From Planctomycetaceae bacterium (GTDB taxonomy: Bacteria > Planctomycetota > Planctomycetia > Pirellulales > Pirellulaceae), in assembly GCA_027487485.1 (NCBI GenBank), contig JAIYDN010000112.1, forward strand, positions 124,001-188,000: a DNA stretch of 64,000 nt, in the 5' to 3' direction. Both the position numbers and the translations under genes were made by a program. The notes below the pieces were generated by a model. It was not told where the DNA came from, did no database searches, and saw only the letters and a program-made list of their open reading frames with translations. Position 1 is the stretch's first letter. Each line of letters begins with the position of its first letter. Below, one piece after another: positions 1 to 17,584 of the stretch.

Positions 1-57
1 AAAAAGTGGTACATATGCCCCTTGAGAATGAGAACGCTCTGCAGGTTGAACCTACTG

Positions 58-522
58 CTAGTCTCGGTCGTCAATCGCAATGCCCCTGGATACAAAATGC
101 TCCTTCACGCTCAAGTAGTGCTCCATCCACAGATCGAAAAGCGTGTAACTCTCAACGGTACCATTCTTCATTTCGAGCTCCCAAATCGTTCGCTGCCAAT
201 TCAGTCGGCCACTACCATAAGCGGCCGACACCTTCACAGCCTTGACGTCAGCCATGGAAATCCTTCCCTCGTGCCGATCCCACCATGGACCCACATTCCA
301 GCTCATATGGCTCTCGTCGAACTGTATTTCGTCCAGAAAGTACGAGGGAAGCTTCAAGCCGAGTGCACCTAAAGCGAGCGTCCAGGCAATAAGCGCCGTG
401 CCGCTCAATTTTCTCTTGTCTTTGCATCTGCTCGCTTCGCGATAGCCAAAATACACTAGTGCTGCGGCCAGAAGAAGTAGACCAATGATATAGAGAAGAG
501 GAGTACGATAAATCGCTTGCAC
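58..522 (-). CDS. hypothetical membrane protein (cassette)
   Basis: 154-aa ORF with N-terminal TM segment; directly downstream of a GTTAGGC box. Confidence 0.55.
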   Translation of the reverse strand: MQAIYRTPLLYIIGLLLLAAALVYFGYREASRCKDKRKLSGTALIAWTLALGALGLKLPSYFLDEIQFDESHMSWNVGPWWDRHEGRISMADVKAVKVSAAYGSGRLNWQRTIWELEMKNGTVESYTLFDLWMEHYLSVKEHFVSRGIAIDDRD

Positions 523-526
523 TTCG

Positions 527-622
527 ACGCCTAACGGCTAAATTCAGCCAGTACGAGTAGTAGTTATCTCAGCGCAAATCAAACGACCAACCGTAGGCTC
601 GGATGCAATCGCTTGTTGCTGA
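527..622 (-). repeat. candidate attC (degenerate arms)
   Basis: rc begins AGCAACAAGCGATTGCATCC and ends AGCCGTTAGGC; arm pairing only partial. Confidence 0.4.
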
Positions 623-650
623 TAGTCCACAAAGATTGAATCGCAAAGAT

Positions 651-875
651 TCAATCGCCGTGACGGCGTGACGCCTCGATTTGAGAACGCTTCCAGTCGT
701 CAGTGAGCATCCCTGAGAATCCCCAATCTTCCTCTTCGATTTCCTGGATCACGATGTGAATATGTTCTGGACGTTTCCCGAGCACTCGCACGAGCGATTC
801 CGTAACGTCTCGGACGAGTTGCGATTTTTGGTCGCGCGTCGCACCTCGGGTGATTTGAACATTCACGTATGGCAT
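651..875 (-). CDS. 4-oxalocrotonate tautomerase family protein
   Basis: MPYVNVQITRGATRDQKSQLVRDVTESLVRVLGKRPEHIHIVIQE; catalytic N-terminal Pro after Met. Confidence 0.85.
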   Translation of the reverse strand: MPYVNVQITRGATRDQKSQLVRDVTESLVRVLGKRPEHIHIVIQEIEEEDWGFSGMLTDDWKRSQIEASRRHGD

Positions 876-961
876 GAAGTTTTCCAACCTCTAAAAGTGA
901 GTTCTCTAAATGTGACGATCCTAGGGAGCAAGCACGAAGTCATTTGCTCGTTCCTGCCTTC

Positions 962-1045
962 GACTAACTGGCGCCAGTCCGATTCGTAACAAGCCCAACA
1001 GCTTGAGCAAGTGAGTCTGGCCAGCATCATCGATCGGTTCAACCC
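962..1045 (-). repeat. candidate attC (weak)
   Basis: rc runs GTTGAAC...GGCGCCAGTTAGTC, downstream of the 1079 stop; partial CTGGC/GCCAG pairing. Confidence 0.35.
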
Positions 1046-1078
1046 AGATTGCTCGGCCCAGATTGCTCGGTCAAATGG

Positions 1079-1384
1079 CTACAGTAAATTTCGCGACGCG
1101 AGTTCTTTCTTCAGAGCGTCATATCTTTTGGATTTCTTCAAGAAAAGATAAATCAGAAACACAGGAATCAGGATAGGGAATCCCCAAGCACTTACGACAA
1201 TTCCGAAGACAACGATACCGATCAAAAACCCAATAAAAAATGCATCGACGATAGGGGATGGCGTTATCTTCTTGAATTCCTCTAGTAATTCATGGTCGCT
1301 TCGTGGAGACAGGTCTTGCTCGTTCATCTTTCCGGAATTTTCCTTTTCAAAGAGTTTACGTATCTCGAACGACATGAGTATATC
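1079..1384 (-). CDS. hypothetical membrane protein (cassette)
   Basis: ORF with hydrophobic stretch PIVDAFFIGFLIGIVVFGIVVSAWGFPILIPVFLIYLFLKKSKR. Confidence 0.55.
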   Translation of the reverse strand, partial: DILMSFEIRKLFEKENSGKMNEQDLSPRSDHELLEEFKKITPSPIVDAFFIGFLIGIVVFGIVVSAWGFPILIPVFLIYLFLKKSKRYDALKKELASRNLL

Positions 1385-15240: not shown

Positions 15241-15884
15241 ACAGTTTTGGTAATTCCGTCTTGGGTGTCTAGTGCATTTGAAATGAATTTGGCGAGATCG
15301 CTCTCGTAGGATTGGCCTTCAACAAATGAGCGAAGATTTTTGTTTCCCGAAATTGACCGAATCAATTCAATTTGATTTCGGACTTCGAGGAGCATCATCG
15401 GGTGAGAGTCGATGTCAGCCGACGAGGTTGATGATTTGCAGCCTGGATCTATCGTCGTTTGGACAGCAAAATCGACCGTGTCGTAGCACACTTGCAGTGC
15501 GTCAGCTAATGGTTCATTGTCGTTTGTTTGGAGCTGACCAAGCAAATCGAGATGTGCTAGTCCTGCGTTAAGCGCAAACGATCCAAGTATCGAGCCGAAA
15601 TCATCGGTGTGCGGAATATGAGGTTCCATTTCTTGCTGGAGTTTCGATGCGTCCACGCCTACACCATCGAGCCATCCGAACCCAGAATCACGACATTTCA
15701 TCAGGACTTCGTTGTCGCCCCAGCTCTCGGTTACCGTGAACCGTCGGTACAACGGTTCCAATCTCAGACAGCAAATAAGGCACAACGCGACCTTCTCACG
15801 CTGCGAAAGCAGGGTTGTTTGGGCCTTAATGGTCTCGGTGTAGTAGGCGAAATCAATCATTCGTCGGATAACGGCACGCATCAC
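15234..15884 (-). CDS. hypothetical protein, possibly DUF416 (YjaG)-like
   Basis: QREKVALCLICCLRLEPLYRRF...DNEVLMKCRDSGFGWLDGV; weak resemblance. Confidence 0.5.
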   Translation of the reverse strand: MMRAVIRRMIDFAYYTETIKAQTTLLSQREKVALCLICCLRLEPLYRRFTVTESWGDNEVLMKCRDSGFGWLDGVGVDASKLQQEMEPHIPHTDDFGSILGSFALNAGLAHLDLLGQLQTNDNEPLADALQVCYDTVDFAVQTTIDPGCKSSTSSADIDSHPMMLLEVRNQIELIRSISGNKNLRSFVEGQSYESDLAKFISNALDTQDGITKTVG

Positions 15885-15956
15885 CGCGGTCGCGGCGAGT
15901 GATACTCCATTGAAAAAACGCCCGACCCGCGACTCCGGCGCATGCGATAGTTATTT
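15866..15956 (-). repeat. attC site
   Basis: rc AATAACTATCGCAT[G]CGCCGGAGTCGCGG...CCGCGACCGCGGTGATGCGTGCCGTTATCC; TAA stop at 15951 in R''. Confidence 0.88.
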
Positions 15957-16619
15957 TGCGGGCTTAGTGATGTACCCGATTTCCTTTAGGTCCTTCGCGA
16001 TCACTTTAAGCGTCGCGTCAGGATTTAGCGATTCCACAATTTCAGTCGTTAACGGAAGATGTTGATAGACGTGCCGGATGCTGTCAATTGGAAGTTCGGT
16101 CTCATAGTAGTCCTCCGCAAACGTTTGGTATGTTTTCGGTTTTCCGTCAAAAAATCCCAAAAGGTAGCAGGAACCATCCGGATCGGTAGAACGCGGGAAT
16201 TTGACTTGGCCTGTCGACCAGCCTTTTTCGTCATGTAGACGCCAAATGCAGAATGTTATATCTGACATCGAGAAAGCAGGTTCAACCAACGCAGAAGAAA
16301 AACAGTTCGGCACATCCTCGAGGAGGCCTGGCCAAATCGACGGCGGATTGTCTCGATATGGAGTCATCGAAGATTCATGAACGAAGCCCTTTACGAGGCA
16401 ACCACTCCGATTGAATAAAGCGAACAAGTCGTCGCCGCTTCCATTTCGCATAGAGCCCATTTCCTCGCCGCGTCCCCATTTCGCGTTAAACGAAAAGTAC
16501 CGCATGTCCCAATCATCGGGCGACATGATGGAATCAAGGACCGCAAGCGATTGCATTAACGCCTTCAGTGAACGAACATCGGGAAGTGGTGTAAGGTTAC
16601 GAGTTGAAATCGAAGCCAT
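15951..16619 (-). CDS. conserved hypothetical protein (cassette)
   Basis: 222 aa soluble ORF; MRYFSFNAKWGRGEEMGSMRNGSGDDLFALF. Confidence 0.7.
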   Translation of the reverse strand: MASISTRNLTPLPDVRSLKALMQSLAVLDSIMSPDDWDMRYFSFNAKWGRGEEMGSMRNGSGDDLFALFNRSGCLVKGFVHESSMTPYRDNPPSIWPGLLEDVPNCFSSALVEPAFSMSDITFCIWRLHDEKGWSTGQVKFPRSTDPDGSCYLLGFFDGKPKTYQTFAEDYYETELPIDSIRHVYQHLPLTTEIVESLNPDATLKVIAKDLKEIGYITKPAK

Positions 16620-16632
16620 TGAGTTCTCTGAG

Positions 16633-16728
16633 CAAAATAATGCCTCCGATGACCGAGCGGCGGCAAGTAAAGTTTCTAAAAGTCAACGCGGCCGATCCGC
16701 CGTTTCGTGGCCATCGGTTTGTTCGTCC
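16633..16728 (-). repeat. attC site with degenerate R'
   Basis: rc GGACGAACAAACCGATGGCCACGAAACGGCGG...CCGCCGCTCGGTCATCGGAGGCATTATT. Confidence 0.75.
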
Positions 16729-17216
16729 GCTTCGATAACAAGATTTGAAACTAAATTGTCCGCTATTCTAACATTGTCAAAAGGCTTGCCGTTCACGTCG
16801 AGTTGGCATTCACCAAAAGGAGCAACCGAGCGATATTTTCTTGAGTATTCGGCACCGTTCTTACCTTGAATTGCTAGCTGGTCCCAAATCCAGGCAATTG
16901 TCTCTACATCGATATCTTTATTCAACCGATCAGCGAGTTGCCGCTTGAACATCACGAAGCTAGTTTCATCAACTATGTAGTCTGGGTTGAAGAAGACGTT
17001 TGGGAATGCAATTTGAGTCCATCGAAGGATTGTCTCCCATTGCAATTGACCAACGCCTTGTGGGGGCATTGATCTTACAGTTTCAAGACGTGCAGTAACG
17101 TCGCGATTCCATGCGTTAAGTTCTCGATAAGGTGCGGTCTTGATGACAATGCCGACCACCAATAAACCGATCAGTATCGCAGAAACAATTGAGAAGTATT
17201 TGACAATTCTCGCCAT
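16683..17216 (-). CDS. hypothetical membrane-anchored protein (cassette)
   Basis: N-terminal TM; C-terminal tail encoded in attC. Confidence 0.65.
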   Translation of the reverse strand: MARIVKYFSIVSAILIGLLVVGIVIKTAPYRELNAWNRDVTARLETVRSMPPQGVGQLQWETILRWTQIAFPNVFFNPDYIVDETSFVMFKRQLADRLNKDIDVETIAWIWDQLAIQGKNGAEYSRKYRSVAPFGECQLDVNGKPFDNVRIADNLVSNLVIEADEQTDGHETADRPR

Positions 17217-17238
17217 ATCGGAAAACGATCACTCCAAG

Positions 17239-17329
17239 GACGAACGCCTGCGATCAACCAGCCCGAGCAGTTGACTCAACGCAAGTCAAAACGGCCGATC
17301 AAGGGCTTGGCGTGCCTCGCTTAGTTCTG
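17239..17329 (-). repeat. attC site, rightmost recognised, TTGACTCAACGCAAGTCAA subtype
   Basis: rc CAGAACTAAGCGAGGCACGCCAAGCCC...GGGCTGGTTGATCGCAGGCGTTCGTC; TAA of the 17321 ORF lies in R''. Confidence 0.82.
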
Positions 17330-17584
17330 TGGCAACTCCGTAGAGGTCCTCAGTGTACCAAATTCCATAGAGCACCGCACGAAGGGCAGAGGCAGCCGTA
17401 CTCGAGCCTTAAGAAGCTTGAAACAAGACTGACCTTTTGAAATAGAATCCCACCGGCAATAGAACGCTTGCGTCCGTTGGAGCAGTCGAATCCCACCCAA
17501 GGTAAGTCGAAGCAGTACGGAACCGACCGTTGGAAGAAACTCGCGTTGGACCGTCTTCTTATCATTGATCGGCCTCAGAATCAC
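17321..17584 (-). CDS. hypothetical protein, possibly first cassette of the array
   Basis: 87-aa ORF ending in attC R''; N-terminus overlaps a 22-bp inverted repeat. Confidence 0.35.
   Translation of the reverse strand: MILRPINDKKTVQREFLPTVGSVLLRLTLGGIRLLQRTQAFYCRWDSISKGQSCFKLLKARVRLPLPFVRCSMEFGTLRTSTELPQN

What the first reader, a model, noticed from the sequence alone, without database searches (positions are those of the whole stretch)
1..17350. Integrase-less planctomycete integron cassette array of roughly 16-19 attC-like sites
The sequence shows co-oriented short genes, one or two per unit, separated by ~90-100 bp imperfect palindromes bearing R''/R' boxes (AAC...GTT) and paired inner arms. 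attC structure is established for integrons; assigning this region as a CALIN or distal chromosomal-integron array is inference. It encodes mostly unknown proteins in a phylum where integrons are little studied.
Basis: partly seen in the sequence, partly recalled or inferred. Interest (0 to 1): 0.88.

Follow-up and report, generated by a model that had tools for sequence, protein, structure and literature searches.

The report
Integrase-less planctomycete integron cassette array
This stretch of a planctomycete chromosome is a genuine row of about twenty mobile gene cassettes with no integrase gene beside it, one of at least seven such rows scattered through a genome that carries over 200 cassette recombination sites, and individual cassettes have moved between species as single units.

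Summary
Confirmed. Window 530-17329 holds 20 strong attC sites plus one weak one, and a further site split by a group II intron. All lie on the minus strand, and none is found in the remaining 47 kb. Arm pairing covaries strongly. The array lies inside a 311-kb contig without intI, so locally it is a CALIN.

It is not isolated. At least 213 sites of the same attC family occur in this 7.5-Mb genome. At least seven arrays are interior to contigs without intI; three intI genes lie on other contigs. All 25 genus members scanned carry the same attC family. One closed genome has 38 sites in about nine clusters and no intI. Window cassettes recur singly in other species at 86-97% nucleotide identity, and homologous segments end at the attC cleavage point far more often than chance. 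attCs are no more alike within an array than between arrays. The simplest reading is one dispersed cassette pool exchanged in trans.

The array is a new member of a known kind (CALIN); planctomycete integrons and dispersed CALINs are already published. Less usual are group II introns inserted at one position inside attCs, and a few genes whose attC was replaced exactly at R''. The second is a lead, not proof.

The parts
530..17329 (-). CALIN: co-oriented cassette array, about 20 cassettes
   Evidence: R1 hits; ORFs
17240..17329 (-). attC (5'-most)
   Evidence: R1 76.7 bits
16636..16726 (-). attC
   Evidence: R1 76.6 bits
15867..15955 (-). attC
   Evidence: R1 74.1 bits
15148..15238 (-). attC
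   Evidence: R1 73.1 bits
14429..14516 (-). attC
   Evidence: R1 66.1 bits
13930..14018 (-). attC
   Evidence: R1 86.0 bits; 97% identical site on contig C79
13360..13449 (-). attC
   Evidence: R1 83.3 bits
12746..12837 (-). attC (replaced by another attC in G012)
   Evidence: R1 65.8 bits
11812..11907 (-). attC, degenerate
   Evidence: R1 30.9 bits
11259..11346 (-). attC
   Evidence: R1 73.0 bits
10926..11013 (-). attC
   Evidence: R1 82.2 bits
10343..10432 (-). attC
   Evidence: R1 72.3 bits
9786..9872 (-). attC
   Evidence: R1 61.4 bits
9217..9307 (-). attC of the non-coding cassette
   Evidence: R1 47.3 bits
8647..8736 (-). attC, degenerate
   Evidence: R1 28.5 bits
8164..8252 (-). attC
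   Evidence: R1 71.9 bits
6634..6723 (-). attC
   Evidence: R1 65.1 bits
6126..6214 (-). attC
   Evidence: R1 54.4 bits
2771..2860 (-). attC
   Evidence: R1 69.2 bits
1676..1764 (-). possible degenerate attC
   Evidence: R1 18.2 bits, E 0.025
530..620 (-). attC (3'-most)
   Evidence: R1 55.0 bits
5291..5449 (-). 5' fragment of a group II intron inserted in an attC left half (GAATCAAGTGAAGCAC|GTGCGTATTGG)
   Evidence: Rfam RF02005 38.7 bits, below gathering; same junction in 6 other attCs of the genome
9222..9790 (-). non-coding cassette, three further full copies in other arrays of the genome (89-90% identical)
16683..17216 (-). cassette gene, 177 aa, no Pfam match
15951..16619 (-). cassette gene, 222 aa, no Pfam match, 853 homologues; homologues in G014 and G010
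15234..15884 (-). cassette gene, DUF416
14567..15178 (-). cassette gene, no Pfam match
14033..14446 (-). cassette gene, no Pfam match
13403..13951 (-). cassette gene, GNAT acetyltransferase
12833..13381 (-). cassette gene, weak LRR match; 97% identical in G012
11978..12532 (-). cassette gene, SMI1/KNR4 (SUKH-1)
11357..11956 (-). cassette gene, no Pfam match; 87% identical in G026
11019..11276 (-). cassette gene, 85 aa
10438..10902 (-). cassette gene, 154 aa
9891..10319 (-). cassette gene, 142 aa
8755..9267 (-). cassette gene, DUF4442/4HBT thioesterase-like
8329..8679 (-). cassette gene, 116 aa
7206..8135 (-). cassette gene, DUF2314 plus ankyrin
6739..7260 (-). second gene of the same cassette, 173 aa
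6210..6629 (-). cassette gene, 139 aa
5507..6109 (-). cassette gene, weak DUF1579; 90% identical in G026
1784..2788 (-). cassette gene, SUFU domain
651..887 (-). cassette gene, tautomerase

Best explanation
The region is a CALIN: about 20 integron gene cassettes in a row, each a small gene (or two, or none) plus an attC hairpin, with no integrase or attI nearby. It is one locus of a cassette pool spread over many chromosomal sites and used by the whole genus. An IntI made elsewhere, in this genome or brought in by transfer, folds the single-stranded bottom strand of attC. It cuts at R' (G^TT) and moves cassettes between arrays and, after DNA uptake, between species. SHOWN: attC structure and covariation, co-orientation, dispersal, absence of intI on the contig, cassette-sized sharing between species with ends at R', and attC similarity that ignores array membership. 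INFERRED: that IntI works on these arrays in trans, that dispersal began by off-target insertion rather than by breaking one array, and that cassettes are expressed. The member proteins are mostly of unknown function.
For: attC model and covariation. 213 sites in the genome's fetched stretches, co-oriented within every locus. At least seven arrays interior to contigs of 114-388 kb that carry no intI: two on C75, three on C73, one each on C59 and C6. Three intI over the cut-off on C85, C110 and C95. For C95, attI abuts a cassette start (AATT|GTTCGTCG) that follows an attC on contig C45, with 119 identical bp. Cassette sharing at 86-97% nt identity with species whose flank proteins are 49-78% identical, the 94-96% identical G020 apart. 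Among 136 homologous pairs, 81 end at R' in at least one copy; counting one copy only, 56% against 3.9% expected. attC identity within arrays 0.561 against 0.563 between; for the separate interior loci 0.554 against 0.557, p 0.67. Closed genome G001: 38 attC in about nine co-oriented clusters plus singletons, no intI.
Against: No empty site could be found: relatives have lost synteny or their contigs break at the arrays, so how this locus was founded is not shown. No recombination assay. Mixing of attCs would also follow from breaking up one old array. The draft assembly means that some array-only contigs may belong to one locus. R1 misses other attC types, so the counts are lower bounds.
Confidence: 0.78

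Rival explanations
1. The array is the relic of a complete integron that stood here and lost its own intI and attI (Cury mechanism ii); each array is a separate dead integron.
For: Loss of intI is common in the genus: only 15 of 27 genomes have one, and closed G001 has none. Two window attCs are degenerate (30.9 and 28.5 bits).
Against: Seven or more separate losses would be needed in one genome. attCs carry no array-specific signature. The 5' edges of the arrays share no sequence with the regions upstream of the three intI genes.
Confidence: 0.2
2. All arrays are pieces of one former large integron scattered by chromosomal rearrangement (Cury mechanism iii).
For: One attC family in all arrays; dispersed repeats and IS91-like sequence near intI and arrays. 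Gene order in the genus is poorly conserved around the locus.
Against: A closed sister genome has small clusters spread around the whole chromosome, which would need many rearrangements. Cassette sharing with other species continues.
Confidence: 0.22
3. The palindromes are ordinary dispersed intergenic repeats (REP or MITE-like) that only resemble attC.
For: The genome does carry other dispersed repeats (window 4791-5336, 19130-19214, 20932-21038).
Against: Strict co-orientation, paired arms with covariation and a bulged base, AAC/GTT boxes in 466 and 461 of 497 sites, homologous segments ending at G^TT, no hits outside arrays.
Confidence: 0.01

Closest known systems
CALIN (clusters of attC lacking an integron integrase; PMC9024848, PMC8618304)
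   Same: Several co-oriented attCs with cassettes, no intI within the locus.
   Different: About 20 sites against a mean of almost 6 per CALIN in RefSeq (PMC9024848); one of many in the genome, with a shared attC pool and group II introns inside attCs.
Dispersed CALINs of Xanthomonas (PMC12444791)
   Same: CALINs at several chromosomal loci away from the intI locus, across a genus.
   Different: There intI sits at one conserved locus (ilvD) and genomes average about 14 attC in X. campestris; here at least 213 attC, three intI genes, and a closed member without intI.
Sedentary chromosomal (super)integrons of Vibrio (179 cassettes in V. cholerae, up to 301 in V. vulnificus; PMC11023631)
   Same: Very large cassette stocks of unknown genes with lineage-specific attCs.
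   Different: Vibrio holds one large array next to intI; here the stock is split over many loci without intI.
Planctomycetes attC set (taxon-specific covariance model; PMC8352920)
   Same: Planctomycete attCs were already described as a class.
   Different: Their model was not available here, so whether these sites match it is untested.
Group IIC-attC introns and group IIB introns in CALINs (PMC7923331)
   Same: Group II introns sitting in attC sites of arrays.
   Different: Classical IIC-attC introns enter the bottom strand at R'' (TTGT/T). Here the introns lie in cassette orientation inside L'', after GATGCAC or its equivalent; one top-strand case is cited in that paper.

Membership tests
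CALIN | two or more attC sites clustered, in one orientation | tested here: met
   20 strong sites, all minus, in 16.8 kb
CALIN | no integron integrase nearby | tested here: met
   no TIGR02249 match above cut-off on C75 (311 kb); three on other contigs
CALIN | attC secondary structure: R''/R' and L''/L' arms with extrahelical bases | tested here: met
   20-pair structure with covariation, 85% cells paired
CALIN | cassettes are mobile units bounded at G^TT | tested here: met
   cross-species homologous segments end at R'
CALIN | detection by IntegronFinder's own attC model | not testable with these tools
   attc_4.cm and HattCI are not available; a local model was used
Complete integron | intI and attI adjacent to the array | tested here: not met
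   no intI on C75; 5' edge shares no sequence with regions upstream of intI
Complete integron | recombination activity of an IntI on these attCs | not testable with these tools
   needs an assay; C95 attI-cassette junction is indirect support
Group II intron in attC | conserved intron 5' end and domain I, flanked by attC halves | tested here: met
   7 junctions with attC left halves; full RF02005 match at L014 73.4 bits; attC right halves resume downstream in L014 and L020 (partial R1 hits, model 16-74). The window copy is only a 5' fragment.

The most novel reading that the evidence does not exclude
Besides moving whole cassettes at R', the integrase of this genus also recombines at R'' (the mirror position, as expected if the top strand of attC is used), so genes and attC sites are re-paired over time. 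That would be a route by which genes acquire new attC sites, which bears on how cassettes are made. Evidence: homologous cassette genes in different species identical up to ...AAC and then carrying unrelated attCs (G012 97%; G014/G010 94%; others), and one attC attached to two unrelated genes in G010.
Probability: 0.2. Interest if true: 0.75.

Novelty: new member of a known kind. Interest (0 to 1): 0.45.

Why it matters
Cassette arrays without integrase are common but their origin is debated (off-target insertion, loss of intI, or rearrangement). This genus, with one attC family, many separate arrays, several integrases and a closed member that has arrays but no integrase, is a natural test bed for those three routes outside Proteobacteria. 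It is also a reservoir of unknown, exchanged genes in planctomycetes.

Tried and rejected
Empty-site search with flank proteins (PolX-like and DUF1800) in 27 genus genomes: anchors lie on different contigs or synteny is lost. Flanks of two small arrays (C73c, C6) in three relatives: contigs of the closest relative end at the array. Orientation of arrays relative to replication by local GC skew in G001 and G000: skew too noisy to give polarity. Naming the organism through the genome collection: own and near records are left out there. PADLOC: no defence match in ten cassette proteins. A first idea that contigs C76 and C20 show a gene with two different attCs was wrong: the attCs are 98% alike with a compensatory pair change, and the copies diverge after R'. 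A first idea that G010 and G026 carry a mobile element after R'' was replaced: in G010 the sequence reads as another attC type (AAC...GGATTAgATTCTG...CAGAATtTAATCC...GTTC), though its fold is only weakly better than shuffles (z -1.25; the G012 one z -3.84).
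Full report
OBSERVATION. The window lies at positions 124001-188000 of a 311,405-bp contig (C75) of a 7.49-Mb draft genome in 114 contigs. Seventeen palindromes were taken from 530-17330 in minus orientation and aligned, and a 20-pair structure was named: R''/R' box, L''/L' arms with a bulged G, a second bulge (AA), then the inner stem. 85.3% of cells pair against 67.1% in shuffles. 54 cells change on both sides against 20 in shuffles, and slid partners drop to 27-45%. The covariance model R1 finds 21 sites in the window, all minus, all in 530-17329, none in the other 47 kb at E <= 1. 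The consensus is GAAC-NAAG-CGATgCACC-CAAG...GGTGATCGC...CGTTCG, a normal attC layout.

CONTENT. About 20 units hold one or two small minus-strand genes. Pfam gives SUFU, DUF2314 with ankyrin, DUF4442/4HBT, SUKH-1 (SMI1/KNR4), GNAT, DUF416, tautomerase, weak DUF1579, LRR and PD40, and nothing for about half. No PADLOC match in ten of them. One gene (15951-16619) has 853 homologues without any Pfam domain. The cassette 9222-9790 has no conserved reading frame, yet recurs at 89-90% identity in three other arrays of the genome and in species G018.

GENOME. Within every locus all sites share one orientation. Arrays interior to contigs: C75 (21 and 16 sites), C73 (25, 11 and 4), C59 (9), C6 (4). Others reach contig ends or fill whole small contigs. 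Integron integrases above the TIGR02249 cut-off lie on C85, C110 and C95 only; C85 and C110 keep the IntI-specific region and the R-H-R-Y residues. So the window array is locally a CALIN in a genome that does have integrases. For C95 the sequence upstream of intI reads ...GAATAATT|GTTCGTCG..., and the part from GTT onward is identical over 119 bp (the assembler's overlap length) to the start of a cassette that follows an attC on contig C45. That is an attI-cassette junction, so the same cassette start occurs both after attI and after an attC.

GENUS. All 25 same-genus genomes scanned carry R1 sites (2 to more than 100), while only 3 of 15 other families of the order have any (1-4 sites). IntI is present in 15 of 27. 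G001, a closed 6.53-Mb chromosome, has 38 sites in about nine co-oriented clusters around the chromosome plus singletons, and no integron integrase; its best TIGR02249 hit (79 bits, partial) is like the Xer-type controls. Dispersal and lack of intI are therefore not assembly artefacts. A flank protein's relatives are named Pirellula sp., Pirellulaceae and Planctomycetota.

CASSETTE MOVEMENT. Single window cassettes occur in other species at 86-97% nucleotide identity (G012 12831-13366 97%; G026 5509-6126 90%; G010 15950-16640 87%; G026 11366-11816 87%; G014 15895-16724 86%; G020 6635-7173 87%). G020 is the nearest relative (flank proteins 94-96% identical); in the other species the flank proteins are only 49-78% identical. 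Over all held arrays, 136 homologous pairs in 35 gene families were examined. The 3' end falls at R' in 81 pairs counting either copy; counting one copy only it is 56% against 3.9% for random positions. attC identity within arrays (0.561) equals that between arrays (0.563; 1435 of 2000 permutations at least as high), also for the six interior loci alone (0.554 against 0.557, p 0.67). This is what one shared pool predicts. It argues against a set of independent integrons, but does not separate off-target founding from break-up of one array.

GROUP II INTRONS IN attC. Seven sites in the genome, one of them in the window (5449), show an attC left half (R'' plus L'') followed at the same place by a group II intron 5' end (GTGCGTACTGG...) in cassette orientation. 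L014 gives a full RF02005 match (73.4 bits). In L014 and L020 the attC right half resumes after the intron (CCCAAGTCGCGG...), seen independently as partial R1 hits from model position 16. Known IIC-attC introns enter the bottom strand at R'' (PMC7923331), so strand and position differ.

R'' BREAKPOINTS (lead). In some cross-species pairs the gene is alike up to ...AAC and the attC after it is different. G012 at 97% identity has an attC-like hairpin of another sequence (z -3.84). G014 and G010 are 94% identical. In G010 the same 141-bp sequence (98.6%) follows both this gene and the first cassette after the attI of its long IntI. Six of 35 families show such an end against about 6% expected, a modest excess. 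By the symmetry of attC, use of the top strand would cut at R''. The literature gives top-strand use as about 1000-fold rarer (PMC8946536) and recombination normally only at L'-R' (PMC2727003). Loss or degeneration of attC, or homologous exchange, is not excluded.

VERDICT. It is best seen as one locus of a genus-wide, dispersed cassette pool. Planctomycete integrons (PMC2426708, PMC8352920), CALINs, dispersed CALINs (PMC12444791) and larger stocks (PMC11023631) are known, so it is a new member of a known kind with some unusual features. The three proposed origins of CALINs (PMC8618304) remain open here.

Noticed in passing
L206 (G026:C198), 1-12688: About 17 small co-oriented genes without R1-type attC, separated by 180-350-bp spacers that share repeats (CTCCGGTTTGACACGCCGGAG ... 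GGAGAATTACTAG^TTC). Three of the genes are homologous to attC cassettes of the window genome and the spacers end in GTT at the same place; possibly an array with degenerate or unusual long sites.
   Followed up: partly
window 19101-21040: Two copies of the same spacer-type repeat (19130-19214, 20932-21038) flank two minus-strand genes, one SUMF1-like by sequence, just right of the attC array.
   Followed up: no
L050-L054 (G024, G010, G020, G009, G021): Integron integrases of about 535-600 aa with an extra N-terminal region of roughly 120 aa before the usual SAM-like domain; in G024 it sits beside R1-type attCs in the normal divergent layout.
   Followed up: partly
G000 C85:43-130 and C110:24569-24656: Upstream of both full intI genes an 88-bp stretch, 97% identical, lies at the contig ends; the following reading frame (MKLTIQRILRQHY...) looks like an IS91-type transposase start (recalled, not tested).
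   Followed up: partly
G000 C95:1-5000: The third integron integrase lies beside a primase/helicase-like gene (854 aa), as in a plasmid or phage-like element.
   Followed up: no
window 4791-5053 and 5074-5336: 263-bp tandem pair of a dispersed genomic repeat, also beside intI on C85 (1440-1667) and on C7, C17, C50, C73 and C75:219 kb.
   Followed up: partly
window 30616-30662: Rfam Acido-Lenti-1 RNA match on the minus strand, 30.7 bits, below the gathering score.
   Followed up: no
G000 contig ends C69/C81, C76/C20, C95/C45: Pairs of contig ends share exactly 119 bp and diverge at or near cassette junctions, so the same cassette has two neighbours: either two copies or a mixed population with moving cassettes.
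   Followed up: partly
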